64,000 nucleotides of DNA. Source: Romanomermis culicivorax. Taxonomy: Eukaryota > Nematoda > Enoplea > Mermithida > Mermithidae. This document shows, in pieces, positions 15,501 through 60,867 of the stretch (its first letter is position 1; each line of letters starts with the position of its first letter). The notes under the pieces are model-generated. The model made no database searches and was not told the DNA's origin. It saw only the letters and a program-made list of their open reading frames with translations. The position numbers and the translations under genes are program-made. The DNA is taken from positions 62,001-126,000 of the forward strand of contig CAWUHX010000421.1 in NCBI GenBank assembly GCA_963922205.1, in the 5' to 3' direction.

Positions 15501-15613
15501 CTGCATTTTTGTTCTTAAAATTCAAGGAACGAAAAAAGACGATTTCGGCCAGGAATTGACGATTTCGTGCGGTACGGCCAGCTGTCGACAGTTATTTCGC
15601 CAGGTTGTATAGC

Positions 15614-37700: not shown

Positions 37701-40700
37701 TTTAGAAATTTTAAACACAAAATTTTAAGTTTTACGTGAAAAAAATTAGAATTTCGAAAATTTTAGTCATAATTTTTTTGAAATTTCGAAATTTTGAACA
37801 CAAAATTCTAAATTTCGGATCGAAAATTCGGATATTTTAGTGAAATTTTTTTTAGAATTTTGATTTTTTTTTTAATTCTAAATTTTGGATCGAATCAGCC
37901 ATAATTTGGTTAATATTTAGAAATTTTCAACGCATAATTCCAAAATTTGCATCAAATTTCCGAAAATTTGTCAAAAATTTTTAGAATTTTCAAACTTTTT
38001 TCCAAAAATTTTCAAATTTCAAATCAAATTTTCGAATTTTTTTGACAAAGTTTTTTCAAAATTTCGGGATTTTTGCATAAAATTCTAAATTTCGGATCGA
38101 AAGTGAAATTTTTTTAGAATTTCGATTTTTTTTCAAATTCTAAATTTTGGATCGAATCAGTCATAATTTCGTTTAAATTTAGAAATTTTCAACGCATAAT
38201 TCCTGAATTTGCATCAAATTTCCGAAATTTTTTCAAAATTTTTTAGAATTTCCAAATTTTTTTCCGAAAATTTTCAAATTTTAAATCAAATTTTCGAATT
38301 TTTTTTTGACAAAGTTTTTTCAAAATTTCGGGATTTTTGCATAAAATTCTAAATTTTCCAACGAATTTTCGAAAATTTTTGGTTATAATTTCGTCAAAAT
38401 TTTAAAAATTTTTCTCATAAAATTCTAAATTTTGGGTGGGAAAAAAATTTAAATTTTTGAACAGAATTTGATTTATAATTGAGAAAATTAAATTTATTTT
38501 TTTTTTAAATTTAAATTCTTAAATCAAATTTTAAAAAATTTAATTAAATTTTTTAATTGTAATTTAAATTATTTTTATTTCAGAAAATCGATCAAGTTAC
38601 CGAAAATGGATCGCCAGAAAAGAAAGCTAAAATTGAAAATAATTTGGAAAAACCGAAAAGAGGTAGAACGGCCAAAAATGCCACAAAAATAGTAAAAGTT
38701 TGTGTTTACACCAAATTTTAAAAAAATTTAAATTTACACTTTTGTATTTTAGGCAGATGTTGTAAAGGAAGAAACGAAAATTGTTACAACAGAAGTCGAA
38801 ACAAATACAAACAAAAAAGTAAATTTAGCAATATTAAAACCTCAAAATTTTCTAAAATTTGAAAGAAAATTAAATTTTTTGAATTTTGAAATTTAATTTC
38901 AAAAAAAAATTTATTTTTTTAAATTTATATTTTTTAGTTTTTTTTTTGAAAATTCAGCTCGAAAAAACAAATTTTTGATAAATTTTTGCAAAAAAAAATT
39001 TTCATAATTTCTTGATTTTCCAATCAAAAGCCTCAAAAAATTAATTTCATTTTAAATTTTAATCTTTTTTAAATTCAAATTTGTTATGAATTTTCGAATC
39101 AAAAACTTGAAAAATTCTCAAATTTCGATTTCGAATTTCTAAACTTAACACTTGAAAATTTTTAGAATTTTGCAAAAAATGACATTTTCACAAAAAAATA
39201 TCCCAAAATTCAATATTTTTTAAATTTTTGTATCGAAAACTCGAAAAATTTTTGAGTTCTGATTTCAAATTTGTAAACTTTACACTTTAAAATTTCTAAA
39301 ATTTTGGAAAAACAAATTTAAAAAAGTTTAAAAAATTCAATTTTTTAAATTTTCGAATCAAAAACTTGGGAAATTTTCCAATTTTGATTTCAAATTTCTG
39401 AACTTGACACTTTAAAATTTTTAGAATTTTGCAAAAAACTACATTTTTACAACAAAATATGCAAAAATTCAATACTTTATGAATTTTTCAAATCAAAAAT
39501 TTAAAAAATCTCCGAGTTTTGATTTCAAATTTGTAAACTTGACACTTTAAAATTTCTAAAATTTTGCAAAAAATGACATTTTCACAAAAAAATATCCAAA
39601 AATTCAATATTTCTTAAATTTTTGTATCAAAAAATTGAAAAAATTTTGAGTTTTGATTTCGAATTTGTAAACTTTACACTTTAAAATTTCTAAAATTATG
39701 CAAAAAATTACATTTTCACAAAAAAATATCCAAAAATTCAATATTTTTCAATTTTTGCATCAAAAACTCGAAAAATTTTCGAGTTTTGATTTCAAATTTG
39801 TAAACTTTACACTTTAAAATTTCTAAAATGTTGCAAAAAATGACATTTTCACAAAAAATATCCAAAAATTCAATATTTTTTAAATTTTTGTATCAAAAAG
39901 TTGAAAGAGTTTTGATTTCGAATTTGTAAACTTTACACTTTAAAATTTCTAAAATTTTGCAAAATATGACATTTTCACAAAAAAATATCCAAAAATTCAA
40001 TATTTTTCAATTTTTGCATCAAAAACTCGAAAAATTTTTGAGTTTTGATTTAAAATTTGTAAACTTTACACATTAAAATTTCTAAAAGTTTGCAAAAAAT
40101 GACATTTTCACAAAAAATATCCAAAAATTCAATATTTTTTTAAATTTTTGTATCAAAAAGTTGAAAAAATTTTGAGTTTTGATTTCAAATTTGTAAACTT
40201 TACACTTTAAAATTTCTCAAATTTTGCAAAATATGACATTTTCACAGAAAAATATCCAAAAATTCAATATTTTTCAATTTTTTGCATCAAAAACTCGAAA
40301 AATTTTTGAGTTTTGATTTCAAATTTGTAAACTTTACACTTTAAAATTTCTAAAATTTTAAAAAAATGACATTTTCACAAAAAATATCCCAAAATTCAAT
40401 ATTTTTCAAATTTTTGCATCAAAAACTCGAAAAATTTTCGAGTTTTGATTTCAAATTTGTAAACTTTACACTTTAAAATTTCTAAAATTTTGCAAAAATG
40501 ACATTTTTACAACAAAATATTCAAAAATTCAATACTTTATGAATTTTTCAAATCAAAAATTTAAAAAATCTCCGAGTTTTGATTTCAGATGTGTAAATTT
40601 TACACTTTAAAATTTCTAAAACTTTGCAAAAAATGATATTTTTACAACAAAATATCCAAAAATTCAATATTTTTCAAATTTTTGTATCAAAAAGTTGAAA

Positions 40701-43700
40701 GAAATTTGATTTCGAATTTGTAAACTTTACACTTTAAAATTTCTAAAATTTTGCAAAATATGACATTTTCACAAAAAAATATTCAAAAATTCAATATTTT
40801 TCAATTTTTGCATCAAAAACTCGAAAAATTTTTGAGTTTTGATTTCAAATTTGTAAACTTTACACTTTAAAATTTCTAAAATTTTGGAAAAAATGACATT
40901 TTCACAAAAAATATCCCAAAATTCAATATTTTTTAATTTTTTGCATCAAAAACTCGAAAAATTTTTGAGTTTTGATTTCAAATTTGTAAACTTTACACTT
41001 TAAAATTTCTAAAATTTTAAAAAAATGACATTTTCACAAAAAATATCCCAAAATTCAATATTTTTCAAATTTTTGCATCAAAAACTCGAAAAATTTTCGA
41101 GTTTTGATTTCAAATTTGTAAACTTTACACTTTAAAATTTCAAAAATTTTGCAAAAAACGACATTTTTACAACAAAATATTCAAAAATTCAATACTTTAT
41201 GAATTTTTCAAATCAAAAATTCAAAAAATCTCCTAGTTTTGATTTCAGATGTGTAAATTTTACACTTTAAAATTTCTCAAATTTTGCAAAAAATGACATT
41301 TTCACAAAAAAAATATCCAAAAATTCAAAATTTTTCAAATTTTTGCATCAAAAACTCGAAAAATTTTTGAGTTTTGATTTCAAATTTGTAAACTTTACAC
41401 TTTAAAATTTCTAAAATTTTGCAAAAAATGACATTTTCACAAAAAAAATATCCAAAAATTCAATATTTCTCAAATTTTTGAGTTTTGATTTCAAATTTGT
41501 AAACTTTACACTTTAAAATTTCTAAAATTTTGCAAAAAATGACATTTTCACAAAAAAATATCCCAAAATTCAATATTTTTTAAATTTTTGTATCAAAAAG
41601 TTGAAAAAAAATTTTGAGTTTTGATTTCAAATTTGTAAAGTTTACACTTTAAAATTTCTAAAATTTTGGAAAAACAAATTTGAAAAAGTTGAAAAAATTC
41701 ATTTTTTTTAATTTTCGAATCAAAAACTTGAAAAATTTTCGAGTTTTTTTTCAAATTTAAATTTTACACTTTAAAATTTTTAGAATTTTGCAAAAAACGA
41801 CATTTTTACAACAAAATATGCAAAAATTCAAAACTTCATGAATTTTTCAAATCAAACATTTAAAAAATCTCCGAGTTTTGATTTAAAATTTGTAAACTTT
41901 ACACATTAAAATTTCTAAAAGTTTGCAAAAACTGACATTTTCACAAAAAATATCCAAAAATTTTTAAATTTTTGTATTAAAAACTCAAAAAATTCTCAAA
42001 TTTCGATTTCAAATTTCTAAACTTAACACTTTAAAATTTCTAAAATTTTGCAAAAAATGACATTTTCACAAAAAAATATCCAAAATTTCAATATTTTTTA
42101 AATTTTTGCATCAAAAACTCGAAAAATTTTTGAGTTTTGATTTCAAATTTGTAAACTACACTTTAAAATTTCTAAAATTTTGCAAAATATGACATTTTCA
42201 CAAAAAAATCCAAAAATTCAATATTTTTCAATTTTTTGCATCAAAAACTCGAAAAAATTTTTGAGTTTTGATTTCAAATTTGTAAACTTTACACTTTAAA
42301 ATTTCTGAAATTTTTGCAAAAAATGACATTTTCACAAAAAAAATATCCCAAAATTCAATATTTTTCAAATTTTTGTCTCGAAAACTCGAAAAATTTTTGA
42401 GTTTTGATTTCAAATTCGTAAACTTTACACTTTAAAATTTCAAAAATTTTGCAAAAAACGACATTTTTACAACAAAATATTCAAAAATTCAAAACTTTAT
42501 GAATTTTTCAAATCAAAAATTAAAAAAATCTCCGAGTTTTGATTTCAGATGTGTAAATTTTACACTTTAAAATTTGTAAAATTTTGCAAAAAATGACATT
42601 TTTACAACAAAATATCCAAAAATTCAATATTTTTTAAATTTTTGTATCAAAAACTCGGAAAATTTTTGAGTTTTGATTTCAAATTTGTAAACTTTACACT
42701 TTAAAATTTCTAAAAGTTTGCAAAAAATGACATTTTCACAAAAAATATCCCAAAATTCAATATTTTTTAAATTTTTGTATCAAAAAGTTGAAAAAATTTT
42801 GAGTTTTGATTTCAAATTTGTAAACTTTACACTTTAAAATTTCAAAAATTTCGGGAAAACAAATTTGAAAAAGTTAAAAAAATTCTTTTTTTTTTAAATT
42901 TTCGAATCAAAAACTTGAAAAATTTTCGAGTTTTTTTTTCAAATTTAAATTTTGCACTTGAAAATTTCTAAAATTTTGCAAAAAAAATAAATCTAAAAAA
43001 GTTTAGAAAATTCAATTTTTTTTAAATTTAATTTTTAATCATAATTTTGAGAAAATTTTGAAAATTCAATTTTTTCAGGAAAAATCGGAAAATGGCACCT
43101 CTTCGGCAGGCAAAAAGGAAAAAAAAACCAAAAATCCAAAGGTAATGCGTAAAAATGTGCTTAGAAAAGTAAAATTGAAATTTTTTGAAAAAAATTTCGA
43201 AATTCTGAAAAATTATGAATCGAATTTTCGGAAATTCGATTAGAATTCAGAATTTTGTGTAAAAAAATTTTCGAAATTTTGGCTATGGAAATTCCTATTT
43301 TTTTACATTTAAAATTTAAAAAATTGTGTTGAAAATTTGGAAATTTTAAAAAATTATGACAAAAATTTTCGGAAATTTCGACTGAAATTTTCGAATATTC
43401 CGTGTAAAATTTAGAGTTTTTTCGGCAACTTAATCCAAGATTGAAAATTTTTTGGAAAAAAATTTCGAAAGTTTGGAGAATCATGACAACAAATTTCGAA
43501 ATTTTGATCCAAAATTGAAAATTTCTTGAAAAAAAATTCGAATTTCTTAGAAATTTTAACTAAAATTTGATTGAAAATTTAGAATTTTTTGAAAAAAAGA
43601 TTCGAAAATTTGATGAAAAATTATAAATTTCTCGAAAAAATTTCGAAATTCTGAGAACTTTTCGAAAGTTTGATGAAAAATTTTGGAATTTTCTATAAAA

Positions 43701-46700
43701 ATTTCGTAATTCTGAGAAATTTCGGAAAATGTGATGCAAAGTTGAAAATTTCTCGAAACAAAAAAATTTGAATTTCTAAGAAATTTTGACTCAAATTTTC
43801 GAAAATTCGATCCAAAAATTGAAAACTTTTGAAGAAAAGAATTCAAAAATTTGATTGAAAATTTAGAATTTTTTGGAAAAAGATTCGAAAATTTGATATT
43901 TTATGAAAAAAAATTCGAAATCGTGAGAAATTTTCGAAAATTTGATGAAAAATTTTCGAAATTGTGAGAAATTAAAAAAATTTGATCCAAAATTCAAACT
44001 TTCTTGAAAAATAAATTCGAATTTCTAAGAAATTTTGCCTAAAATTTTCGAAAACTCGATCCAAAATTCGAAAATTTTTGAAAAAAATTGGAAAATTTGA
44101 TTAAAAATTTGGAATTTTTCGAAAACATATCGAAACATTGAGAAAAAGTTATAAATTTCTTGAAAAAAATTTCGAAATTCTGAGAAGTTTTCGATCGCGG
44201 ATATGATAAATTTGGAATTTTTTGGAAAAAATTTCGACATTCTTGAAAATTTTCGAAAATTTGATGAAATCTTTTGAAAAAAATTTTGAAGTTGTGAGAA
44301 ATTTTCGAAAATTTGATGAAAGATTTTGAATTTTCTGGAAAAAATTTCCAAATTTTGTCAAATTTATGACTAAAATTTTATCCAAAATTCAAAATTTCTT
44401 GAAAAAAAATTTGAATTTCTAAGAAATTTTAACTCAAATTTTCGAAAATTGGATCCAAAATTTGAAATTTTTTTAAAAAAATTGGAAAATTTGATTACAA
44501 ATTTAGAATTTTTCGAAAAAATATCGAAACATTCAGAAAAAGTTATAAATTTCTTGAAAAAAATTTCGAAATTCTGAGAAATTTTCGATCGAGGATATGA
44601 TAAATTTGGAATTTTTTTTGGAAAAATTTCGACATTCTTGGAAATTTTCGAGAATTTGATGAAATCTTTTGAAAAAAATTTCGAAATTGTGACAAATTTT
44701 CGAAAATTTGATGAAAAATTTTGAATTTTTTTGAAAAAATAATTTCGAAATTTTTACAAAATTATAGCTAAAATTTTCCAAAATTCGCAAATATAACATT
44801 TTTCAGCAGGAAAAACTCGAATCCGAAGCGAATATTTACCAGGAAAATGATATTTTACTCAATTTGTGGCTGAAATTTTCGAAAATTTGATCCAAAATTT
44901 GAAAAAAAATTTAGGATTTTGTGAAAAAAAAATTGTGAAAAATTATAAAAAAAATTTTTTTGAGAAAAATTCCAAAATTCTGAAAAATGTTCGAAAATTT
45001 GATAAAAAATTTTGAAAAAAATTTCGAAATTTTCGTCAAATTAATGTCTAAAATTTTATCCAAATTCGCAATTATTGCTCTTTTTCAGCAGGAAAAACTC
45101 GAATCCGAAGCGAATATTTCCCAGGAAATCGATATTTTACTCAATTTGTGGCTGAAATTTTCGAAAATTTGATGCCAAATTTGAAAAAATTGGAAAATTC
45201 GATTAAAAATTTAGGGTTTTTTTGAAAAAAATTGTGAAAAATTATAAAAAATTTAAAAAAAAAAAAAAAATTCCGAAATTCTGGAAAATTTTCGAAAATT
45301 TGATGAAAAATTTTGAAATTTTTTGAAATTTTGTCAAATTCATGACTAAAATTTTATCCAAAATTCGCAATTATTTCTGCTTTTTTCAGCAGGAAAAACT
45401 CGAATCCGAAACGAATATTTCCCTGGAAAATGATATTTTACTCAATTTATAGCTGAAATTTTCGAAAATTTGATGCAAAATTTGAAAAAAAATTGGAAAA
45501 TTCGATTAAAAATTTAGGATTTTTTGAAAAAAATTGTGAAAAATTATAATTTTTTTGAAAAAAAAATCCGAAATTCTGAAAAATTTTCGAAAATTTGATG
45601 AAAAATTTTGAAAAAAAATCGAAATTTTTATAAATTCATGACTAAAATTTTATTCAAAATTCCCAATTATTGCTCTTTTTCAGCAGCAAAAACTCGAATC
45701 CGAAGCGAATATTTCCCTGGAAATCGATATTTTACTCAATTTGTGGCTAAAATTTTCGAAAATTTCATCCAAGATTTGATAATTTTCGAAAAAAAATTCC
45801 AAAATTTGATTAAAAATTTTAATTTAAAAATGAAATTGTGAATATTTGAAAAAAAATTCCAAAATTCTGAGAAATTTTCGAAAATTTGTTGAAAAATTTT
45901 GGAATTTTTTTTGAAAAAAATTTACAATTTCAATTGTTTCAAGCTTAAAAATGCAGGTTTTCAAGGAGAAAGGTTGAATTTTTGAAGAAATCACAATTTT
46001 TTTACTGAAAAATTTAAAATTTTAATTGTTTTAAGCTTAAAAATGAAAATTTTCAAGAAAAAAAGTTGAATTTTTGACCAAATTTAATTCAAAAATCACA
46101 ATTTTTTTACTGAAAAATTTACAATTTCAATTGTTTCAAGCTTAAAAATGCATGTTTTCAAGGAAAAAAGTTGAATTTTTGACCAAATTTGATTGAAGAA
46201 ATTACAATTTTTTTACTGAAAAATTTACAATTTCAATTGTTTTAAGCTGAAAAATGAAAAATTTCAAGAAAAAAAGTTGAATTTTTGATCAAATTTGATT
46301 CGAAAATCGCAATTTTTCGCTGGAAAATTGCTGGAAATTTTCTAAAATTTGATGAAAAACTTTGAAATTTTTTGAAAAAAATTCGAAAATTTTTTAAATT
46401 CGTGACTGAAAATTTATCCAAAATTCGCAATTATTGCTCTTTTTCAGCAGGAAAAACTCGAATCCGAAGCCCTGGAAAATGAAATTTTACTCAATTCGGA
46501 TAAAAAAACGGCCGACGGACGAGAATTTTCTTTAAAAATTTCTTGTTGGAACGTGGCCGGTTTGCGCGCTTGGTTCGAAAAAGGCGCCCATAAATTTTTA
46601 ATTTCGCAAGAAAAACCGGATATTTTATTCGTCCAAGAAACAAAAATTTGTAAAGATGAAGATTTACAAGTCGAATTTAGAAGAATTCAAGGCTACCATT

Positions 46701-49700
46701 CTTATTCCGCTTATTCCAAAAAGAAAGGTTACGCCGGCGTTACGTTATATTCGAAAATTATGCCCATGAACGTAGATTACGGTTTGGGTGAGGTTTAAAT
46801 CAAAATTTTTTAAAATTTTAAATTTTTTTGAAATTTTAAAATTTTTTGAAATTTTAAAATTTTTTGAAATTTTAAAATTTTTTGAAATTTTGAAATTTTT
46901 TAAATTTTTCTTTGAAAAATTTTTGTCCATTTAAAGTTATTACTATTATTATTATGTATTTTCTATTTTTTAAATTTTTTGTCTCTTTAAATTCTTTTGG
47001 TTTTTTATTCCTTCATTTTTTGTTTTTTTTCAAATTTTTTTTCAAGTTTTTGGATTTTTTGTATCAAAATTTTTTTTTGGTTTTTTGAAATGAATTTTTT
47101 TTTTTAATCAAAAATTTGCGTCCATTGAAATTTTTTTGTGGTTTTTTGATTTTTTTTCTTTTCCTTTTTATATTTTATATAGCTTTTTTACGGTTTGGGT
47201 GAGGTTTAAATCGAAATTTTTTAAAATTTTAAATTTTTTTGAAATTTTAAAATTTTTTGAAATTTTGAAATTTTTGAAATTTTATAAATTTTTCTTTCAA
47301 AATTTTTTGTCCATTTAAAGTTATTACTTGTATTTTCTATTTTTTAAATTTTTTGTCTCTTTAAATTCTTTTGGTTTTTTATTCCTTCATTTTTTGTTTT
47401 TTTTTCAAATTTTTTTTCAAGTTTTTGGATTTTTTGTATGAAAATTTTTTTTTGGTTTTTTGAAATGAATTTTTTTTTTTAATCAAAAATTCGCGTCCAT
47501 TGAAATTTTTTGTGGTTTTTTTGATTTTTTTTCTTTTTCTTTTTATATTTTATATAGCTTTTTTACGGTTTGGGTGAGGTTTAAATCGAATTTTTTAAAA
47601 TTTTAAAATTTTAAATTTTTTTGAAATTTTGAATTTTTTGAAATTTTATAAATTTTTCTTTCAAAATTTTTTGTCCATTTAAAGTTATTACTTGTATTTT
47701 CTATTTTTTAAATTTTTTGTCTCTTTAAATTCTTTTGGTTTTTTATTCCTTCATTTTTTGTTTTTTTTCAAATTTTTTTTCAAGTTTTTGGATTTTTTGT
47801 ATCAAAATTTTTTTTTGGTTTTTTGAAATGAATTTTTTTTTTTAATCAAAAATTTGCGTCCATTGAAATTTTTTTGTGGTTTTTTGATTTTTTTTCTTTT
47901 CCTTTTTATATTTTATATAGCTTTTTTACGGTTTGGGTGAGGTTTAAATCGAAATTTTTTAAAATTTTAAATTTTTTTGAAATTTTAAAATTTTTTGAAA
48001 TTTTGAAATTTTTGAAATTTTATAAATTTTTCTTTCAAAATTTTTTGTCCATTTAAAGTTATTACTTGTATTTTCTATTTTTTAAATTTTTTGTCTCTTT
48101 AAATTCTTTTGGTTTTTTATTCCTTCATTTTTTGTTTTTTTTTTCAAATTTTTGTTTCAAGTTTTTGGATTTTTTGTATGAAAATTTTTTTTTGGTTTTT
48201 TGCAATGAATTTTTTTTTTAATCAAAAATTTGCGTCCATTGAAATTTTTTTGTGGTTTTTTGATTTTTTTACTTTTTATTTTTTTTTATTTTATATAGCT
48301 TTTTTACGGTTTGGGTGACGTTTAAATCGAAATATTTTAAAATTTTAAAATTTTAAATTTTTTTGAAATTTTGAATTTTTTGAAATTTTATAAATTTTTC
48401 TTTCAAAATTTTTTGTCCATTTAAAGTTATTACTTGTATTTTCTATTTTTAAATTTTTTGTCTCTTTAAATTCTTTTGGTTTTTTATTCCTTCATTTTTT
48501 GTTTTTTTTCAAATTTTTGTTTCAAGTTTTTGGATTTTTTGTATGAAAATTTTTTTTTGGTTTTTTGCAATGAATTTTTTTTTTAATCAAAAATTTGCGT
48601 CCATTGAAATTTTTTTGTGGTTTTTTGATTTTTTTACTTTTTATTTTTTTTTATTTTATATAGCTTTTTTACGGTTTGGGTGACGTTTAAATCGAAATAT
48701 TTTAAAATTTTAAAATTTTAAATTTTTTTGAAATTTTGAATTTTTTGAAATTTTATAAATTTTTCTTTCAAAATTTTTTGTCCATTTAAAGTTATTACTT
48801 GTATTTTCTATTTTTAAATTTTTTGTCTCTTTAAATTCTTTTGGTTTTTTATTCCTTCATTTTTTGTTTTTTTTCAAATTTTTGTTTCAAGTTTTTGGAT
48901 TTTTTGTATGAAAATTTTTTTTTGGTTTTTTGCAATGAATTTTTTTTTTAATCAAAAATTTGCGTCCATTGAAATTTTTTTGTGGTTTTTTGATTTTTTT
49001 TCTTTTCCTTTTTATATTTTATATAGCTTTCTTACGGTTTGGGTGAGGTTTAAATCGAAATTTTTTAAAATTTTAAATTTTTTTGAAATTTTAAAATTTT
49101 TTGAAATTCTGAAATTTTTTGAGATTTTGAATTTTTTGAAATTTTATAAATTTTTTTTCAAAATTTTTTGTCCATTTAAAGTTATTACTTGTATTTTCTA
49201 TTTTTTAAATTTTTTGTCTCTTTAAATTCTTTTGGTTTTTTATTCCTTCATTATTTGTTTTTTTCAAATTTTTTTTCAAGTTTTTGGATATTTTGTATGA
49301 AAATTTTTTTTTGTTTTTTGAAATGAATTTTTTTTAATCAAAAATTTGCGTCCATTGAAATTTTTTTGTGGTTTTTTGATTTTTTTTCTTTTCCTTTTTA
49401 TATTTTATATAGCTTTTTTACGGTTTGGGTGAGGTTTAAATCGAAATTTTTTAAAATTTTAAAATTTTAAATTTTTTTGAAATTTTAAAATTTTTTGAAA
49501 TTCTGAAATTTTTTGAAATTTTGAAATTTTTGAAATTTTAGAAAATTTTTCTTTCTAAAATTTTTGTCCATTTAAAGTTATTACTTGTATTTTCTATGTT
49601 TTAAATTTTTTGTCTCTTTAAATTCTTTTGGTTTTTTATTCCTTCATTTTTTGTTGTTTTTTTCAAATTTTTGTTTCAAGTTTTTGGATTTTTTGTATGA

Positions 49701-52700
49701 AAATTTTTTTTGATTAAAAATTTTTTTTTGGTTTTTTGATTTTTTACTTTTTATTTTTTTTATTTTATATAGCTTTTTTACGGTTTGGGTGAGGTTTAAA
49801 TCGAAATTTTTTAAAATTTTAAAATTTTAAATTTTTTTGAGATTTTAAAATTTTTTGAAATTCTGAAATTTTTTGAAATTTTGAAATTTTTGAAATTTTA
49901 TAAATTTTTCTTTCAAAATTTTTTGTCCGTTTAAAGTTATTACTGGTATTTTCTATTTTTTAAATTTTTTGTCTCTTTAAATTCTTTTGGTTTTTTATTC
50001 CTTCATTTTTTGTTTTTTTCAAATTTTTTTTCAAGTTTTTGGATATTTTGTATGAAAATTTTTTTTTGTTTTTTGAAATGAATTTTTTTTTTAATCAAAA
50101 ATTTGCGTCCATTGAAATTTTTTTGTGGTTTTTTGATTTTTTTTCTTTTCCTTTTTATATTTTATATAGCTTTCTTACGGTTTGGGTGAGGTTTAAATCG
50201 AAATTTTTTAAAATTTTAAATTTTTTTGAAATTTTAAAATTTTTTGAAATTCTGAAATTTTTTGAGATTTTGAATTTTTTGAAATTTTATAAATTTTTTT
50301 TCAAAATTTTTTGTCCATTTAAAGTTATTACTTGTATTTTCTATTTTTTAAATTTTTTGTCTCTTTAAATTCTTTTGGTTTTTTATTCCTTCATTATTTG
50401 TTTTTTTCAAATTTTTTTTCAAGTTTTTGGATATTTTGTATGAAAATTTTTTTTTGTTTTTTGAAATGAATTTTTTTTAATCAAAAATTTGCGTCCATTG
50501 AAATTTTTTTGTGGTTTTTTGATTTTTTTTCTTTTCCTTTTTATATTTTATATAGCTTTTTTACGGTTTGGGTGAGGTTTAAATCGAAATTTTTTAAAAT
50601 TTTAAAATTTTAAATTTTTTTGAAATTTTAAAATTTTTTGAAATTCTGAAATTTTTTGAAATTTTGAAATTTTTGAAATTTTAGAAAATTTTTCTTTCTA
50701 AAATTTTTGTCCATTTAAAGTTATTACTTGTATTTTCTATGTTTTAAATTTTTTGTCTCTTTAAATTCTTTTGGTTTTTTATTCCTTCATTTTTTGTTGT
50801 TTTTTTCAAATTTTTGTTTCAAGTTTTTGGATTTTTTGTATGAAAATTTTTTTTGATTAAAAATTTTTTTTTGGTTTTTTGATTTTTTACTTTTTATTTT
50901 TTTTATTTTATATAGCTTTTTTACGGTTTGGGTGAGGTTTAAATCGAAATTTTTTAAAATTTTAAAATTTTAAATTTTTTTGAGATTTTAAAATTTTTTG
51001 AAATTCTGAAATTTTTTGAAATTTTGAAATTTTTGAAATTTTATAAATTTTTCTTTCAAAATTTTTTGTCCGTTTAAAGTTATTACTGGTATTTTCTATT
51101 TTTTAAATTTTTTGTCTCTTTAAATTCTTTTGGTTTTTTATTCCTTCATTTTTTGTTTTTTTCAAATTTTTTTTCAAGTTTTTGGATATTTTGTATGAAA
51201 ATTTTTTTTTGTTTTTTGAAATGAATTTTTTTTAATCAAAAATTTGCGTCCATTGAAATTTTTTTGTGGTTTTTTGATTTTTTTTCTTTTCCTTTTTATA
51301 TTTTATATAGCTTTTTTACGGTTTGGGTGAGGTTTAAATCGAAATTTTTTAAAATTTTAAAATTTTAAATTTTTTGAAATTCTGAAATTTTTTGAAATTT
51401 TGAAATTTTTGAAATTTCATAAATTTTTCTTTCAAAAATTTTTGTTCATTTAATTACTTGTATTTTCTATTTTTTAAATTTTTTGTCTCTTTAAATTCTT
51501 TTGGTTTTTTATTCCTTCATTTTTTGTTTTTTTTTTCAAATTTTTTTTTCAAGTTTTCGGATTTTTTGTATGAAAATTTTTTTTGATTAAAAATTATTTT
51601 TTTTGGTTTTTTGAAATGAATTTTTTTTTAGTCAAAAATTTGCGTCCATTGAAATTTTTTTGTGGTTTTTTGATTTTTTTACTTTTTATTTTTTTTTATT
51701 TTATATAGCTTTTTTACGGTTTGGGTGAGGTTTAAATCGAAATTTTTTAAAATTTTAAATTTTTTTGAGATTTTGAATTTTTTGAAATTTAAAGTTATTA
51801 CTTGTATTTTCTATTTTTTAAATTTTTTGTCCCTTTAAATTCTTTGGTTTTTTATTCCTTCATTTTTTGTTTTTTAATTTTTGAATTTAAGAGGTTTAAA
51901 TTTGAATTTTTAAATTTTTTTTTGATTTAAAAATTTTTTTTTGTTTTTTTGAAATGAAATTTTCTTTTAATCAAAAATTTGCGTCCATTGAAATTTTTTT
52001 GTGGTTTTTTGATTTTTTTTCTTTTTATTTTTTTATTTTATATAGCTTTTTTACGGTTTGGGTGAGGTTTAAATCGAATTTTTTAAAATTTTAAAATTTC
52101 AAATTTTTTTGAAATTTTGAATTTTTTGAAATTTTATAAATTTTTCTTTCAAAATTTTTTGTCCATTTAAAGTTATTACTTGTATTTTCTATTTTTTAAA
52201 TTTTTTGTCTCTTTAAATTCTTTTGGTTTTTTATTCCTTCATTTTTTGTTTTTTTTTCAAATTTTTTTTCCAAGTTTTTGGATTTTTTGTATGAAAATTT
52301 TTTTTTGATTAAAAATTTTTTTTGGTTTTTTGAAATGAAATTTTTTTTGATCAAAAATTCGCGTCCATTGAATTTTTTTTTGTGGTTTTTTGATTTTTTT
52401 CTTTATTTTTTTATTTTGTAGCTTTTTTAATGTTTTTTTGCTTTTTCTTTAATTGAAAATTTCTTGTAATCAAAAATTTGCGTCCATTATAAAATAATTT
52501 TTTCTTTAAAATTTTCGTCCGTTCAAAACTGAAATTTTTTCGAATTTTTTGCTTTTTTCGAAGGTTTTTTTCCATTCTTTGAAAATTTTGTCATTTTTTC
52601 AAAAATTTTCTTATTTTTTGGTTTTTCAATTTTTTTTTGATTTCATCATATTTTTGTTATTTTTTTCAATTAAAATATATTTTTGAGTTTTTTTTTTGGT

Positions 52701-55700
52701 TATTTGATTTTCTTTTAATTTCTCTTTTTTCTTTTTTTCTTCTTTTTTTTCAATTTTTTACTCATTTTTTGCTTTAAAAAAATCGTTTTCCAATTTAAAA
52801 TTTTCGTCTATTTGAATGTTATTATTATTATTGTTTTTATTTTTTACAATTTTTTGTGTTTTTTTTAATTTTTTGTTTCTTTCTATTTTTAACGGTTTTT
52901 AAATTTTTCTGGTTTTTTGAAATTTTTTGAATTTTTTCATTCAAAACAAGATTTAAATTGTTTTGATTTTTCGAAATTTAAATTTGTTTTGATTTTTCGA
53001 AATCGAAATTTTTTTTCTGATTTTATGAATTTAAAAACTTTTGTTTAATTTCTTATTTTTTAAAAAAATTTTCCATTTTTTAAAATTTTTCTGATTAAAA
53101 ATTTTTGTGCATCGAAATTTTTTTCTATGAAAAATTTTTGTCCATTTAAAAGTTTTTTCTTCAAATGAAATTCATTTATTTTTTTATAATTTTTTTCCCT
53201 ATTTCTTCATTTTTTTCTTTTTTTAATTTTTTTGGTTATTTTAATTGAATTTTTTTAATCAAAAATTTGCGTCCATTGAAATTTTTTTTTTTGAAAATTT
53301 TTTGCCTATTTAAAAGTTATTTTTAAAATTTTTTCATTTATTTATTTTTATATTTTTTTGTTTTACAATTTTTTGGCTATTTATTTTCATATTTTAGTTT
53401 TTTTAATTTTTTGGCTTTTTATTTTTTTAATTTTTAAATTTTTTGCTTTTTAAATTTATTATTGTTTTTTTGAATGCAACTTTACTTTTTTTGAAATTTT
53501 TTTTAGTTTTTTTATTTCTTTTTTTATTGGTTTTTTAAATTTTTGCTTTTTTTCATTTGAAATTTTTTTTTAATCAAAAATTTGCATCTATTGAAACTTT
53601 TTTTCAAAAATTTTCGTAGATTTAAAAGTTACTTTTATTATTTTATTTTATCATTTTTTAATTTATCAGGTTTTTTAATTTTTTTTTGGTTTTTTTTAAA
53701 TTTTTACTCTTTTTTTAAATTTGTTTTTTGATTTTTTCAATTAAAAATTTTGTTAATCAAAAATTTTCGTTGATTTAAAAGATATTATTATTATTTTTAT
53801 TTTTTAAATTTTTTGCGTTTTTAGATTTTTTTGTTTTTTCAATTTTTTTTTTTTTAAATTTTTTTCAATCAAAATTTTTTGTCCATTTGAAAGTTATTAT
53901 TATGATTGTTTTTTTTTATTCGGTTTTAAATTTTTTTGTTTCTTTTTTTAATTTTTTATTTTAAAAAATTTTCATCTTCTCTATTATTTTTTTGAAATTT
54001 TAAAATTTTAAATTTTTTTGAAATTTTATAAATTTTTCTTTCAAAAATTTTTGTCCATTTAAAGTTATTACTTGTATTTTCTATTTTTTAAATTTTTTGT
54101 CTCTTTAAATTCTTTTGGTTTTTTATTCCTTCATTTTTTGTTTTTTAATTTTTTAATTTAAGAGGTTTAAATTTGAATTTTTCAAATTTTTTTTTCAAGT
54201 TTTTGGATTTTTTGTATGAAAATTTTCTTGATTAAAAATTATTTTTTTTGGTTTTTTGAAATGAATTTTTTCTAATCAAAAATTTGCGTCCATTGAAATT
54301 TTTTTGTGGTATTTTGTTTTTTTTTCTTTTTATATTTTATATAGCTTTTTTACGGTTTGGGTGAGGTTCAAATCGAAATTTTTTAAAATTTTAAATTTTT
54401 TTAAAATTTTAAATTTTTTTGAAATTTTAAAATTTTTTAAATTTTTCTTTAAAAAATTTTTGTTTATTTAAAGTTATTACTATTATTATTATGTATTTTC
54501 TATTTTTTAAATTTTTTGTCTCTTTAAATTCTTTTGGTTTTTTATTCCTTCATTTTTTGTTTTTAAATTTTTAAATTTAAGAGGTTCAAATTTGAATTTT
54601 TCAAATTTTTTTTTCAAGTTTTTGGATTTTTTGTATGAAAATTTTCTTGATTAAAAATTATTTTTTTTGGTTTTTTGAAATGAATTTTTTCTAATCAAAA
54701 ATTTGCGTCCATTGAAATTTTTTTGTGGTTTTTTGTTTTTTTTTCTTTTTATATTTTATATAGCTTTTTTACGGTTTGGGTGAGGTTCAAATCGAAATTT
54801 TTTAAAATTTTAAATTTTTTTAAAATTTTAAATTTTTTTGAAATTTTAAAATTTTTTAAATTTTTCTTTAAAAAATTTTTGTTTATTTAAAGTTATTACT
54901 ATTATTATTATGTATTTTCTATTTTTTAAATTTTTTGTCTCTTTAAATTCTTTTGGTTTTTTATTCCTTCATTTTTTGTTTTTTTCACATTTTTTTTCAA
55001 GTTTTTGGATTTTTTTGTATGAAAATTTTTTTTGATTAAAAATTTTTTTTGGTTTTTTGAAATGAATTTTTTTTTAATCAAAAGTTTGCGTCCATTGAAA
55101 TTTTTTTGTGGTTTTTTGATTTTTTTACTTTTTATTTTTTTTAATTTTATATAGCTTTTTTACGGTTTGGGTGAGGTTTAAATCGAAATTTTCTAAAATT
55201 CTAAAATTTTAAATTTTTTTGAAATTTTATAAATTTTTCTTTCAAAAATTTTGGTCCATTTAAAGTTATTACTTGTATTTTCTATTTTTTAAATTTTTTG
55301 TCTCTTCAAATTCTTTTGGTTTTTTATTCCTTCATTTTTTGTTTTTTTTCAAATTTTTTTTTCAAGTTTTCGGATTTTTTGTATGAAAATTTTTTTTGAT
55401 TAAAAATTATTTTTTTTTGGTTTTTTGAAATGAATTTTTTCTAATCAAAAATTTGCGTCCATTGAAATTTTTTTGTGGTTTTTTGTTTTTTTTTCTTTTT
55501 ATATTTTATATAGCTTTTTTACGGTTTGGGTGAGGTTCAAATCGAAATTTTTTAAAATTTTAAATTTTTTTAAAATTTTAAATTTTTTTGAAATTATAAA
55601 ATTTTTTAAATTTTTCTTTAAAAAATTTTTGTTTATTTGAAGTTATTACTATTATTATTATGTATTTTCTATTTTTTAAATTTTTTGTCTCTTTAAATTC

Positions 55701-58700
55701 TTTTGGTTTTTTATTCCTTCATTTTTTGTTTTTAAATTTTTAAATTTAAGAGGTTTAAATTTGAATTTTTAAATTTTTTTTTGATTTTTAAAATTTTTTT
55801 TCAAATTTTTGGATTTTTTGTACGAAAATTTGTTTTTGATTAAAAATTTTTTTTTGTTTTTTTGAAATGAATTTTTTTTTAATCAAAAATTTGCGTCCAT
55901 TGAAATTTTTTTGTGGTTTTTTGATTTTTTTTTCTTTTTTTTTTATTTTATATAGCTTTCTTACGGTTTAGTTGAGGTTTAAGTCGAAATTTTTTAAAAT
56001 TCTAAAATTTTAAATTTTTTTGAAATTTTAAAATTTTTTGAAATTTTAAAATTTTTTGAAATTTTATAAATTTTTCTTTCAAAAATTTTTGTCCATTTAA
56101 AGTTATTACTTGTATTTTCTATTTTTTAATTTTTTTGTCTCTTTAAATTCTTTTGGTTTTTTATTTATTTACTCTTTTTTTCTTTTTTTAAATTTTTTTT
56201 TTGATTTTTTCAATTAAAAATTTTGTTAATCAAAAATTTTCGTCGATTTAAAAGGTATTATTATTATTTTTATTTTTTAAATTTTTTTTTGCGTTTTTAG
56301 ATTTTTTTGTTTTTTCAAATTTTTTTTTTGAAATTTTTTTCAATCAAAATTTTTTGTCCATTTGAAATTTAATATTATGATTGTTTTTTTTATTCGGTTT
56401 TAAATTTTTTTGTTTTTTTTAATTTACTTTTTTAAAAAATTTTCATCTTCTCAATTTTTTTTTTGAAAAATTAAAATTTTTTGCTTTAAATAATTTTATT
56501 TTTCAATTTTTTTTTAAAAAAATTTTTCTCCCAAATTTTAATTTTGGGTGTTTTTTTCTTAATTTGAGGATTGAAATTTTCAAATTTTTTTTTAAATTTT
56601 CGTCCAAATTGCTCAATTTTCATTGTTTTTTTTTGTTCAGGTAAACCCGAACACGACGAAGAAGGACGTGTTATAACGGCCGAATATGAAAAATTCTATT
56701 TAGTCGGTGCTTGTAAGTTTACAATTTTTATTTTTTTTTCTATTTTTTTTATTTTTTTTCTATTTTTTTCTATTTTTCTTTTTTATTTTTTATTTTTTTA
56801 TTTTATTTTTTTTTTTATTTTTTTTTACATTCCATAATTTAAATTTTGTTTACACTCTATTTGGCACGTCAAAATTTTATAAAAAGTGTAAAATGTGTAG
56901 GATTCGATCAAATTGTTCACATTAAATTCAAAATTTTTTAATTTTTTTTCTAAATTTTTATGCGAATATTTTTAATTTCTTTTTTTGTTTTTTATTTATT
57001 TTTTTCTTTAATTTATTTTTAAATTATAATTTTCATTTCAAAAAAAATTTGTATTTTTTTATTTTGCTGAAAAAATAACAAAAATTAAAAGAACAGATGT
57101 TCATGAGAAAAATGAATCCAAAAAATGAAAAAAAAAATGAAAAAACAAAAAAAAAGAAAAAAACGGAAAAAAGACAAAAAATGTCAAAAATACGATGAAA
57201 AAAGTAAAAAGGATTTCAAAAAAACTGAAAAAATAAATTGAAAAATTTGGAAACATTGAAAAAATTCAAAAAATGTTCTAAAAAATGGAAAAATCAAGAG
57301 AATAAAAAATGAAAGAATGAAAACAAAAAAAATCAAAAAAATAAAAAATTTATAAAATACGCAAATTAAAACGAAAAAAACCAACAAAAAATAAAAAAAC
57401 ACAAAAAAAAATTGAAAAAATTAAATTTGAAAACATTGAAAAAAATGCATAAAAATTCAAGTTTGAAAATTTTATACATGTTTATGAGAAAAATGAATCC
57501 AAAAAATAAAAAAAATGAGAAAAAGAAAAAAAATGGAAAAAAGACAAAAAATGTCAAAAATACGATGAAAAAAGTTGAAAGGATTTCAAAAAACTGAAAA
57601 AAATAAATTAAAAAATTTGGAAACATTGAAAAAATTCAAAAAATGATCTAAAAAATGGAAAAAAAAGAGAAACGAAAAAAGCAAAAAACTGAAAAAACAA
57701 GAGAATAAAAAATGAAACAAATAAAATGAAAGAATGAAAACAAAAAAATCAAACTAATCAAAAAAACAAAAAATTTAAAAAATTCGGAAAATAAAACAAA
57801 AAAACAAAAAAAAACTGAAAAAACAAGAGAATAAAAAATGAAAGAATGAAAAGAAAAAAATCAAAAAAACAAAAAATTTATAAAATGCACAAATTAAAAC
57901 GAAAAAAAAACCAACAAAAAATGAAAAAAAAACACAAAAAAACTGAAAAAATTAAATTTGAAAACGTTGAAAAAAATGCATAAAAATTTAAGTTTGAAAA
58001 TTTAATACATGTTCATGAGAAAAATGAATCCAAAAAGTAAAAAAAGGAAAAACAAAAAAAAAATGAAAAAACGGAAAAAAGACAAAAAATGCCAAAAATA
58101 CGATGAAAAAAGTAGAAAGGATTTCAAAAAACAGAAAAAATAAATTGAAAAATTTGGAAACATTGAAAAAATTCAAAAAATGATCTCAAAAATGGAAAAA
58201 AGAGAAACGAAAAAAGCAAAAAACTGAAAAAACAAGAGAATAAAAAATGAAAGAATGAAAACAAAAAAAAAATCAAAAAAACAAAAAATTTATAAAATGC
58301 AAAAAATAAAATGAAAAAACCAACAAAAAATGAGAAAAACACAAAAAAAACTGAAAAAAATAAAATTTGAAAACGTTGAAAAAAATGCATAAAAATTTAA
58401 GTTTGAAAATTTTATACATGTTCATGAGAAAAATGAATCCAAAAAGTAAAATAATGAAAAAACAAAAAAAAGAAAAAAAACGGAAAAAATACAAAAAATG
58501 TCAAAAATACGATGAAAAAAGTTGAAAAATTTTTCAATATTTTTGTTTTTTTTCTTTAATTAAATTTTTTGTTTTTTTTGTTTTTTATCACTTTTTTCAA
58601 AAAAAATAATTTTTTTAATTTCTAGACGTCCCAAATAGTAGCCGAGGTTTAATTCGTTTGGTTTTTTTTATTTTTTTATTGAAAAAATAAAAATGAAAAA

Positions 58701-60867
58701 ACAAAAAACTGTCGAAAATGTTGAAAAACACATAAAAATTTGAATTTTTAAAAATAAGAAATATATAAAATAACGAAAAATAAAGAAATAAAGAAAAACA
58801 AAAAAAGAGAAAAAATAAAAAAAATAAATTTAAAATTTTTTTCTAAATTTTTCAATATTTTTGTTTTTTTTCTTTAATTAAATTTTTTGTTTTTCATCAC
58901 TTTTTTCAAAGAAAATTAAATTTTTTAAATTTCTAGACGTCCCAAATAGTAGCCGAGGTTTAATTCGTTTGGAATATCGTCGAACGTGGAACGAAGATTT
59001 TTTAAATTATTTAAAAAAATTAGACGCCAAAAAACCCGTAATTTTATGCGGCGATTTAAACGTGGCCCATCAAGAAATTGGTGAAAAAATTTTTTGTTTA
59101 CATTTTTTAATTTTTTTGCTTAAATTTTTAAATTTTTTTGTTTACATTTTTAACTTTTTTTTTAACATTTCTCGACCTTTTGTGTACATTTTTTAATTTT
59201 TTTGCTTAAATTTTTAAATTTTTTTGTTTACATTTTTAAGCTTTTTTTAACATTTCTCGAACTTTTGGGTACATTTTTTAATTTTTTTGCTTAAATTTTT
59301 AAATTTTTTTGTTTACATTTTCAAGCTTTTTTCAACATTTCTCGAACTTTTGTGTACATTTTTTAATTTTTTTGCTTAAATTTTTAAATTTTTTTGTTTA
59401 CATTTTTAAGCTTTTTTTAACATTTCTCGAACTTTTGTGTACATTTTTTAATTTTTTTGCTTAAATTTTTAAATTTTTTTGTTTACATTTTTAACTTTTT
59501 TTTAACATTTCTCGAACTTTTGTGTACATTTTTTAATTTTTTTTGTTTAAATATTCAAATTTTTTTGTTTACATTTTTAATTTTTTAAAAACATTTCTCG
59601 AACTTTTGGGTACATTTTTTAATTTTTTTGCTTAATTTTTTAAATTTTTTTGTTCACATTTTTAACTTTTTTTTAACATTTCTCGAACTTTTGTGTACAT
59701 TTTTTAATTTTTTTGTTTAAATTTTCAAATTTTTTTGTTTACATTTTTAATTTTTTAAAAACATTTCTCGAACTTTTGGGTACATTTTTTAATTTTTTTG
59801 CTTAATTTTTTAAATTTTTTTGTTCACATTTTTAACTTTTTTTTAACATTTCTCGAACTTTTGTGTACATTTTTTAATTTTTTTGTTTAAATTTTCAAAT
59901 TTTTTTGTTTACATTTTCAACTTTTTTTAAACATTTCTCGAACTTTTGTGTACATTTTTTAATTTTTTTGTTTAAATTTTTAAATTTTTTTGTTTACATT
60001 TTTAATTTTTTTTAACATTTCTCGAACTTTTGTGTACATTTTTTAATTTTTTTGCTTAAATTTTTAAATTTTTTTGTTTACATTTTTAACTTTTTTTTAA
60101 TATTTCTCGAGCTTTTGTGTACATTTTTTAATTTTTTTCTTTACATTTTTTAATTTTTTTGTTTACATTTTTTTGCTGGAATTTAATTTTCATTTTTGTT
60201 TACATTTTTTTCTCTAATTTAATTTTTTTTTGGTTTACATTTCTTCCCGTATTCAATTTTTCATCATTTTTTAATCTTTTGTTCACAATTTTTTTAAATT
60301 TTTTTTGTTTACATTTTTTCTTGAATTTAACTTTGTTTACATTTCTTTTTCGAATTGTTAAGTTTAGAATTTTTTGGGCATTTAATTGTTTAGTTTTGTT
60401 TACATTTTTTCGAATTTTTTTGTCAACATTTTTTTTGGAATTTAATTTTTATTTTTGTTTGTTTACATTTTTTAATTTTTTTGTTTTCTATTTATCGAAT
60501 TTTTTTGTTTATTTTTTTTTAAATTTTCTTTGTTTACATTTTTACATTTTTTTGTTTTCATTTTTTCTCAAATTTAAATTTAAATTTTTTTAAGATTTTA
60601 AAATTTTTAATTTAAAAAATTTTTTTAAATTAAAATTTTTAATTAAAAAAAATTTTTTTTAAATTAAAATTTTTAATTTTTTTAAGATTTGGCCAATCCG
60701 AAAACAAACAAGAAAAATGCAGGTTTTACACCTGAAGAGAGAGTCGATTTTACAAAATTGTTGGACTCCGGTTTTGTGGACGCTTTTCGATTTTTGTACC
60801 CTCAGGAAACGGGCGCCTACACTTTTTGGACCAATATGCGCAATTGTAGAGAGAAAAATATTGGATG
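28728..60867 (+). CDS. APEX1: AP endonuclease, APE1/ExoIII family, with AT-hook N-terminal extension; 3' partial
   Basis: Eleven exons (28728-28748, 30649-30690, 34233-34277, 34338-34379, 38584-38697, 38753-38818, 43079-43141, 46451-46787, 56641-56712, 58937-59080, 60687-60867) give 375 codons plus two bases. The last roughly 40 residues lie beyond the window. Residues 1-131 are Lys/Glu-rich with an AT-hook (KRGRPAK) and PKRGRTAK. A long charged N-terminus recalls Drosophila Rrp1, and a shorter basic one mammalian APE1. The endonuclease/exonuclease/phosphatase fold starts near 160 ([13 protein letters not shown]). Family catalytic positions present: Asn165, Glu194 (QETK), Tyr268 (AYVPN), Arg274, Asp307 and Asn309 (GDLNVAH), Phe362 and Trp376. 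The APE1 Asp70 position is Ala167, as I recall for Rrp1. The role is to cut DNA 5' of abasic sites in nuclear base-excision repair. The catalytic domain is certain; exons 1-3 are less sure. Confidence 0.85.
28749..30648. other. AP endonuclease intron 1, low complexity
   Basis: 1.9 kb of AAAATTTAGAATTTTG and GAAATTTTCGAAAATT modules without a fixed period. No exon is seen. The style is the same as in 8100-9180 and 43142-44800. Confidence 0.6.
30649..30690 (+). CDS. APEX1: AP endonuclease exon 2
   Basis: Strong acceptor TTTTTTTTCAG, 14 codons ([14 protein letters not shown]), weak donor GTTATG, phase 0. If the donor were not used the frame would stop five codons later (TGA). Codon use and charge fit the neighbouring exons. 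Confidence 0.5.
30691..34232. repeat. AP endonuclease intron 2, degenerate ~100-120-bp repeat
   Basis: 3.5 kb made of a degenerate unit containing AAAATTGACAATTTCGACTG, TTTAAGTTTAAAAATGAAAATTTTC and CAAATTTTGTTCAAAAATCAC. It is too diverged for exact copy counts. Units between about 33000 and 33480 are nearly alike and so younger. Confidence 0.65.
34233..34277 (+). CDS. APEX1: AP endonuclease exon 3
   Basis: Acceptor AAATTTTTCTAG, then [15 protein letters not shown], phase 0. Two weak donors are possible: GTTGGT after 34277 or GTCAAT after 34268; both keep the frame. The next exon is only 60 bp away. Confidence 0.45.
34338..34379 (+). CDS. APEX1: AP endonuclease exon 4 (AT-hook)
   Basis: Acceptor TTTTTTTTTCAG, 14 codons [14 protein letters not shown], donor GTAAAA, phase 0. 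It has the canonical AT-hook core RGRP. It is the counterpart of 334-381 in the paralogue. Confidence 0.75.
34380..38583. repeat. AP endonuclease intron 4 with 157-bp satellite-like array
   Basis: GAGCCTAAAAGAAGCGAAAA recurs near 34514, 34777, 34933, 35090, 35247, 35910, 36066, 36224, 36381, 36538 and 36695. Spacing inside the two blocks is 156-158 bp and copies are nearly identical. Between 35300 and 35860 shorter, diverged units occur. From 37150 to 38580 the intron is non-tandem AAATTCTAAATTTTG sequence. Confidence 0.85.
38584..38697 (+). CDS. APEX1: AP endonuclease exon 5
   Basis: Acceptor TTTTTATTTCAG. The 38 codons hold [14 protein letters not shown] and [17 protein letters not shown]. 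The end may instead be 38691 (donor GTAAAAGT, better than GTTTGT); both are phase 0. It is the counterpart of 4470-4583, which has 38 codons. Confidence 0.7.
38753..38818 (+). CDS. APEX1: AP endonuclease exon 6
   Basis: Acceptor TTTGTATTTTAG, 22 codons ([20 protein letters not shown], then KK), donor GTAAAT, phase 0. Charged, Thr/Val-rich linker sequence. Confidence 0.65.
38819..43078. repeat. AP endonuclease intron 6, ~131-bp tandem array
   Basis: From about 39050 to 42960 a unit of 126-134 bp is repeated roughly 28 times. Marker TTTGTAAACTTTACACTTTA lies near 39278, 39669, 39802, 39928, 40061, 40195 and 40328, and on through 42820. Other modules are AAAATGACATTTTCACAAAA and TTTTTGCATCAAAAACTCG. 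Variant units (ACAACAAAATAT, GATTTCAGATGTGTAAATTT) recur at intervals, showing multi-unit amplification. Confidence 0.85.
43079..43141 (+). CDS. APEX1: AP endonuclease exon 7
   Basis: Acceptor AATTTTTTCAG, 21 codons ([20 protein letters not shown], then K), donor GTAATG, phase 0. Ser/Gly then Lys-rich linker just before the catalytic exon. Confidence 0.7.
44801..44866 (+). pseudogene. Decoy copy 1 of exon 8 5' edge
   Basis: TTTCAGCAG and then GAAAAACTCGAATCCGAAGC and about 37 more exon-like bases. Matches to exon 8 stop at CTCAATT. No usable donor follows and the frame ends at TGA. Confidence 0.75.
45081..45148 (+). pseudogene. Decoy copy 2 of exon 8 5' edge
   Basis: TTTTTCAGCAG and GAAAAACTCGAATCCGAAGC, 282 bp after copy 1. 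The acceptor is as strong as that of real exon 8. Confidence 0.75.
45381..45449 (+). pseudogene. Decoy copy 3 of exon 8 5' edge
   Basis: TTTTTTCAGCAG and GAAAAACTCGAATCCGAAAC, 301 bp after copy 2. An in-frame TAG follows CTCAATTTA. Confidence 0.75.
45675..45743 (+). pseudogene. Decoy copy 4 of exon 8 5' edge
   Basis: CTTTTTCAGCAG and CAAAAACTCGAATCCGAAGC, 294 bp after copy 3; the first codon is CAA instead of GAA. Real exon 8 follows 764 bp later. Confidence 0.75.
46451..46787 (+). CDS. APEX1: AP endonuclease exon 8 (start of nuclease domain)
   Basis: The tandem acceptor TTTTTCAGCAG allows the exon to start at 46448 (extra Gln) or 46451; both keep phase 0. It encodes 112 residues plus one base, with [23 protein letters not shown] and [10 protein letters not shown]. 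The donor is GTGAGG. Catalytic Asn and Glu positions of the family are present. Confidence 0.9.
46788..56640. repeat. AP endonuclease intron 8: 9.85-kb array of ~360-400-bp units with decoy splice sites
   Basis: The end of exon 8 plus donor and 16 intron bases (ACGGTTTGGGTGAGGTTTAA) is real at 46779. It recurs at 47190, 47565, 47928, 48306, 48671, 49034, 49420, 49780, 50177, 50563, 50923, 51318, 51716, 52053, 54352, 54771, 55162, 55521 and 55963. Spacing is mostly 337-442 bp. Other unit markers are AAATTTGCGTCCATTGAAAT and GGTTTTTTATTCCTTCATTT. 49034-50176 and 50177-51317 form a 1.14-kb higher-order duplication. 52400-54000 and 56170-56500 are T-rich sequence without the donor motif and share a segment. 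Confidence 0.9.
56641..56712 (+). CDS. APEX1: AP endonuclease exon 9
   Basis: Acceptor TTTTTTTTGTTCAG, donor GTAAGT (a perfect match), phase 1 at both ends. It encodes [20 protein letters not shown] and VGA. The EGRVI-E-F core is characteristic of APE1/ExoIII enzymes. Confidence 0.9.
56713..58936. repeat. AP endonuclease intron 9 with a purine-rich block
   Basis: 56713-57060 is T-rich. 57080-58530 switches to A/purine-rich sequence (GAAAAAACAAAAAAAAAG) with repeats marked by TTCATGAGAAAAATGAATCC near 57099, 57480, 58006 and 58423. 58530-58936 is T-rich again and duplicated around the exon 10 acceptor. Phe-rich reverse frames in this block are repeat translations. Confidence 0.75.
58535..58661 (+). 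pseudogene. Decoy copy of exon 10 5' edge
   Basis: 36 bases (58626-58661) are identical to the start of exon 10 (58937-58972). They are preceded by the same TTTCTAG acceptor and a similar upstream stretch (TTTCTTTAATTAAATTTTTTG, TATCACTTTTTTC). Exon similarity breaks off at CGTTTGG; the frame then runs into intron sequence and stops. Confidence 0.8.
58937..59080 (+). CDS. APEX1: AP endonuclease exon 10
   Basis: Acceptor AAATTTCTAG, donor GTGAAA, phase 1. The split codon gives Tyr268, and [17 protein letters not shown] and [14 protein letters not shown] follow. The GDLN motif holds the proposed general base Asp and its Asn partner. Confidence 0.9.
59081..60686. repeat. AP endonuclease intron 10 with a very regular 85-bp array
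   Basis: CATTTCTCGA recurs with CTCGA at 59171, 59256, 59341, 59426, 59511, 59597, 59682, 59767, 59852, 59937, 60021 and 60106, i.e. every 84-86 bp. Units hold GTTTACATTTTTAA and GTACATTTTTTAATTTTTTT. The intron's opening bases match the unit. 60130-60680 continues as degenerate TTTACATTTTT sequence. Confidence 0.9.
60687..60867 (+). CDS. APEX1: AP endonuclease exon 11
   Basis: Acceptor TTTTTTTAAG, donor GTGAGC, phase 1 to phase 2. The split Asp316 leads to [18 protein letters not shown], then [16 protein letters not shown] and the split Trp376. The family continues with the Asp-His containing C-terminal part, which must lie beyond 64000. Confidence 0.9.

What the first reader, a model, noticed from the sequence alone, without database searches (positions are those of the whole stretch)
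43142..60686. Introns that appear to grow by tandem duplication across their own splice junctions
In the AP endonuclease gene three exon edges have extra copies inside the neighbouring intron: the exon 8 start (4 copies), the exon 8 end (19 copies) and the exon 10 start (1 copy). The receptor gene shows the same for exon 2 (88 nt) and the exon 3 acceptor. Exon pieces mark where each duplication began, so the arrays arose from the junctions and not from insertion of a foreign element. Each long intron also has its own repeat family. Together this points to a recurrent process of junction-anchored intron expansion that I do not know as a described system.
Basis: partly seen in the sequence, partly recalled or inferred. 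Interest (0 to 1): 0.85.

Follow-up and report, generated by a model that had tools for sequence, protein, structure and literature searches.

The report
Tandem duplications crossing exon-intron junctions
In an unusually A/T-rich stretch of the genome of a mosquito-parasitic roundworm, introns have swollen into tandem-repeat arrays, and several of the repeating units carry a copied sliver of the neighbouring exon together with its splice site; this looks like rampant local duplication in one kind of genomic region rather than a new genome-wide machine.

Summary
In the APEX1-type gene (Romanomermis culicivorax), exon 8's start has 4 extra copies, its end 19, and exon 10's start 1. The receptor's exon 2 end (89 nt) has one copy; the claimed exon 3 acceptor copies contain no convincing exon sequence. 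In all, 4 of 16 exon edges are crossed. Each exon 8 array traces to one founding joint. A third gene on the contig, an STK11-like kinase, shows the same at both edges of one exon. Elsewhere, 0 of 51 coding matches at 40 loci do, against 4 of 13 exons here (p 0.001, indicative). The contig is 25% GC and 53% tandem arrays, against 36% and 3% around 30 kinase matches elsewhere. So this is compartment-specific tandem duplication whose endpoints sometimes fall inside exons. Junction-crossing duplications and satellite-filled introns are each described. Open: exon-side breakpoints sit closer to junctions than uniform (8 of 9 at or below 0.26 of the exon; KS p 5e-4), so selection or a bias at the A/T-to-G/C step stays unresolved. 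New variant of a known kind; moderate interest.

The parts
46448..46787 (+). APEX1-type gene, exon 8 (340 nt)
   Evidence: Exon with acceptor cag and donor gtgagg; PF03372 in the joined exon translation; the best APEX1 matches of the whole genome are on this contig
44802..44864 (+). copy 1 of the exon 8 start with its acceptor (first 23 exon nt exact, about 58 exon-derived nt in all)
45084..45146 (+). copy 2 of the exon 8 start
45385..45447 (+). copy 3 of the exon 8 start
45679..45741 (+). copy 4 of the exon 8 start (the alignment runs on to 45752)
46777..46801 (+). real exon 8 end (TTACGGTTTGG, 11 nt) and donor, the founder of the array
47188..52076 (+). first block of the intron 8 array: 14 junction copies (11-nt exon 8 end and donor), spaced 337-398 bp
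   Evidence: of all 19 copies 16 keep GTGAGG and 2 read GTGACG
54350..55986 (+). second block of the intron 8 array: 5 more junction copies, the last one decayed
56641..56712 (+). APEX1 exon 9, no edge copies found
58620..58661 (+). copy of the exon 10 start (6 intron nt + 36 exon nt, identical)
58937..59080 (+). APEX1 exon 10 (144 nt), real
59092..60678 (+). intron 10 array; starts 12 nt past exon 10, no exon copy found
39071..43061 (+). intron 6 array (offset about 132 bp); stops 17 nt before exon 7, no exon copy found
24453..24821 (+). receptor gene B, exon 2 (369 nt)
   Evidence: 112 of 112 residues identical to R. culicivorax A0A915HVG2
25550..25638 (+). copy of the last 89 nt of receptor exon 2, followed by its donor
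   Evidence: used as part of an extra exon in the public model P0121
27229..28048 (+). 124-bp array before receptor exon 3: repeats the intronic acceptor side, no convincing exon sequence
15527..15613 (+). truncated exon 2 of receptor copy A: a roughly 8.7-kb tandem unit breaks inside this exon

Best explanation
The window lies in an A/T-rich, array-rich compartment of the Romanomermis culicivorax genome. There, local tandem duplications of sizes from 23 bp to about 10 kb arise, probably by template switching or end joining at short homologies (inferred), and are then amplified by unequal exchange (inferred). Where one endpoint happens to fall inside an exon near its edge, the unit carries that exon edge and splice site into the intron, and later amplification multiplies it. 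Such duplications are tolerated because the original junction stays intact, so the copies persist as unused or rarely used splice-site decoys (inferred). Shown: tandem arrangement, a single exon-side joint for each exon 8 array, recurrence in three genes of this contig, and absence from 51 sampled coding matches elsewhere.
For: All 19 and all 4 exon 8 copies share one exon-side joint each. Three-nt overlap (TTA) between the exon breakpoint and the sequence at the end of the first array block (my reading, one joint). Recent higher-order duplication: units 6-8 and 9-11 are 99-100% identical. Duplications also break inside exons at gene scale: the 8.7-kb receptor unit and the roughly 10-kb kinase units that carry the end of exon J. 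Arrays cover 84% of intron bases, 13-58% of three stretches outside the gene models and 0.2% of exon bases, so they are regional, though denser in introns. Contig GC 0.247 and arrays 53% against flank GC 0.357 and arrays 3.2% at 30 kinase matches elsewhere. Exon-edge copies 4 of 13 against 0 of 51. The junction part of the array is not specially conserved: rank 52 of 362 windows. Differences among the exon 8 start copies change amino acids, as in non-coding DNA (read).
Against: The exon-side breakpoints are closer to junctions than random placement predicts. The receptor copy differs from its exon by 9 synonymous and 2 amino-acid changes, p 6e-5, and the kinase exon-edge copies by synonymous ones in the stretches printed (read), which simple neutral decay of a dead copy does not give. 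Four other loci with arrays over at least 20% (L039, L048, L049, L057) showed no exon copy, so arrays alone do not bring junction copies.
Confidence: 0.7

Rival explanations
1. Junction-biased expansion: duplication endpoints are drawn to exon edges because the step from A/T-rich intron to G/C-richer exon acts as a clamp for strand slippage or template switching (or because of co-transcriptional events at splice sites). Exon slivers are then its regular signature.
For: Exon-side extents 11/340, 49/340, 36/144, 89/369, 95/369, 30/313, 42/313, 76/313 and 61/117: 8 of 9 at or below 0.26 of the exon, KS p 5e-4. Exon GC 0.43 against intron GC 0.20 in the window. One acceptor, that of kinase exon K, was hit by two different founders (30 and 42 nt).
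Against: Nine events from three genes are not independent, two of them belong to gene-scale units, and selection against long exon copies would give the same skew. Other arrays stop or start next to the junction without crossing it (introns 6 and 10).
Confidence: 0.2
2. Scars of gene-copy turnover: in the receptor and kinase genes the exon pieces are remnants of whole tandem gene copies, cut down by unequal exchange or deletion, and not direct duplications of the junction.
For: Both genes are tandemly duplicated with truncated copies. Copy-exon differences are mainly synonymous: 9 of 11 in the receptor. Kinase copies carry codons seen in other units' real exons: the exon K end copies share AACCCGCCG with unit 3.
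Against: No second APEX1 gene of like similarity was found, yet APEX1 shows 3 crossed junctions; its exon 8 start copies differ at amino-acid positions.
Confidence: 0.25
3. The copies are used: extra or alternative exon ends, or regulatory decoys. In the receptor the copied 89 nt plus array sequence form an in-frame 43-codon exon.
For: The public model P0121 includes it. Mainly synonymous divergence. 16 of 19 intron 8 copies keep the donor GTGAGG.
Against: The model is a prediction, and no RNA evidence was available here. It would duplicate part of a transmembrane region (my reading). Junction copies in intron 8 are no more conserved than other parts of the unit. Exon 8 start copies run into stops (read).
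Confidence: 0.08
4. Assembly artefact.
For: Some blocks are 99-100% identical.
Against: Most pairs of intron 8 units are only 55-95% identical. The public protein P0121 contains both receptor exon 2 and its copy. The held assembly (595 contigs) is not the 62,537-scaffold one of 2013. That the protein comes from the 2013 assembly is recalled, not shown.
Confidence: 0.03

Closest known systems
[quoted passage not shown] Drosophila novel intron positions, PMC2891723; passages of both read)
   Same: In potato a tandem duplication crosses an exon-intron boundary and carries the splice site and a piece of exon. The same paper cites fission-yeast genes in which an exonic 24-bp segment is duplicated several times and an intron spans up to four duplicates.
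   Different: There the result is a new intron. Here the old intron gets longer, junction copies are amplified to as many as 19, and no new intron is shown.
Satellite-filled introns and duplicated exons of Drosophila Y-linked genes (PMC8794474, passages read; PMC6508621, start of abstract in a search listing)
   Same: Array-rich compartment, long introns with gene-specific repeats, duplicated exons, and a proposed role for microhomology-mediated repair in tandem duplication and birth of repeats.
   Different: Whether this contig is sex-linked or heterochromatic is unknown. Units that include an exon edge were not mentioned in the passages read.
Internal gene duplication (Gao and Lynch 2009; recalled, and cited in PMC4974935)
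   Same: Local tandem duplication within genes as a common source of new structure.
   Different: As I recall, those duplications concern whole exons or introns; here edges of exons.
Introner elements (PMC9860276, start of abstract in a search listing)
   Same: Large-scale remodelling of introns.
   Different: Introners insert copies of themselves at many genes. Here the units contain the gene's own junction, and the families differ between introns of the window.

Membership tests
Tandem duplication crossing an exon-intron junction | Direct head-to-tail copies containing both exon and intron sequence contiguous as at the real junction | tested here: met
Tandem duplication crossing an exon-intron junction | Creation of a new, spliced intron | not testable with these tools
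   no RNA data held for this gene; only the predicted model P0121
   0 of 51 coding matches at 40 loci, two gene families, flanks mostly up to 1.5 kb and shorter at some locus ends; splice sites there were not verified one by one
   8 of 9 at or below 0.26 of exon length, KS p 5e-4, but few genes and selection not excluded
Drosophila-Y-like satellite introns | Introns filled with tandem repeats | tested here: met
   84% of intron bases in TRF arrays; 6 of 8 introns at 66-99%, 2 at 0
Drosophila-Y-like satellite introns | Location on a non-recombining sex chromosome or in heterochromatin | not testable with these tools
   no male/female coverage or linkage data
Introner / transposable element insertion | The same element at many unrelated introns | tested here: inconclusive
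   Between introns of the window only weak similarity in 8 of 21 pairs. The genome search with two intron 8 units listed only 64-85% matches elsewhere, but it also failed to list its own locus, so it proves little

The most novel reading that the evidence does not exclude
In A/T-rich parts of this genome the exon edge itself fixes where tandem duplications end, so introns grow by repeatedly copying their own splice junctions outward. The exon slivers are then a dated record of each expansion and a natural supply of decoy splice sites.
Probability: 0.2. Interest if true: 0.75.

Novelty: new variant of a known kind. Interest (0 to 1): 0.5.

Why it matters
As I recall, intron lengthening is usually explained by mobile-element insertion. 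Here arrays carry an internal tag, an exon sliver, that shows their origin and founder. Because the compartment holds the genome's best APEX1 matches, it offers a way to ask how a probably working gene tolerates 19 copies of its own donor site, and whether duplication endpoints favour exon edges.

Tried and rejected
Chance matches: rejected. Foreign insertion: rejected, since units contain the host exon edge contiguous with the host intron. Selection on the junction copies of intron 8: no sign, the junction window ranks 52 of 362 by conservation. Receptor exon 3 acceptor as an exon copy: dropped. APEX1 as a redundant pseudogene: not supported; the next best places (C129, C69) match at 41-42% over the C-terminal part and C129 at 33% over another part, against 45-73% on C421, and many other hits look like the endonuclease domain of retrotransposons (my reading). 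But the last exon (residues 301-336 of the Plectus protein) was not found in the 66 kb downstream, so completeness is unsettled. An edge-level Fisher test (7 of 21 against 0 of 94) was set aside because the edges elsewhere were not verified individually; earlier exon-level tests used 12 exons or 47 matches, the last one 13 and 51. My first regular-expression counts undercounted and were replaced. The first copy scan of the kinase loci was replaced, which has positive controls; there exon 10's known copy was not among the four hits printed (array repeats ranked higher). Of the 30 kinase matches 11 contain stop codons, so they may span a short intron or be broken. Extents entered as 50, 43, 77, 62 and 97 nt were recounted as 49, 42, 76, 61 and 95.

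Full report
What the window is. The receptor exons match Romanomermis culicivorax proteins exactly (112 of 112 residues of A0A915HVG2; 132 of 132 of A0A915K434), and the AP endonuclease exon 8 matches an R. culicivorax AP endonuclease at 98% over 96% of the query. The genome is held as G000 (359.1 Mb, 595 contigs), and the window is bases 62001-126000 of a 189,215-bp contig, C421.

Noticed in passing
L006-L010 (contig C421:2001-52000): STK11/LKB1-like kinase exon K in five tandem units spaced 8.5-11 kb, identical in protein over 105 residues; two of the units are 99% identical over 9.9 kb.
   Followed up: partly
window 4470-4715 and 38584-38697: An exon-like stretch 34 kb upstream (EIEQESPEKKAKLADEEKPKRGGRAKI) resembles APEX1 exon 5 (QVTENGSPEKKAKIENNLEKPKRGRTAKN): perhaps a displaced copy of the gene's N-terminal part.
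   Followed up: no
L012 about 1636-1881 (contig C421:127636-127881, minus strand): A first-exon-like piece resembling an ERK-type MAP kinase (GQCFEVGPRYSNLQYIGEGAYGMV; the name is my recall); the kinase matches listed for this contig include no further exon of it.
   Followed up: no
window 24822-25549: The 23-bp minisatellite unit of receptor intron 2 (TGACAGGTCACATGATTGATGAT) resembles the exon 2 end plus donor (TGACAGTTTTGGGTATGATTGATGAT), so the small array may itself descend from the junction (read).
   Followed up: no
contig C421:122869-189215 (end of window and L012-L018): The expected last APEX1 exon (about 36 residues) was not found in the 66 kb after exon 11; a very long intron, a missed or unassembled exon, or a truncated gene are all possible.
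   Followed up: partly
P0128 (R. culicivorax AP endonuclease, 129 aa): The public model stops right after exon 8 by reading through the donor (GLGEV), so the public annotation of this piece ends where the array begins.
   Followed up: yes
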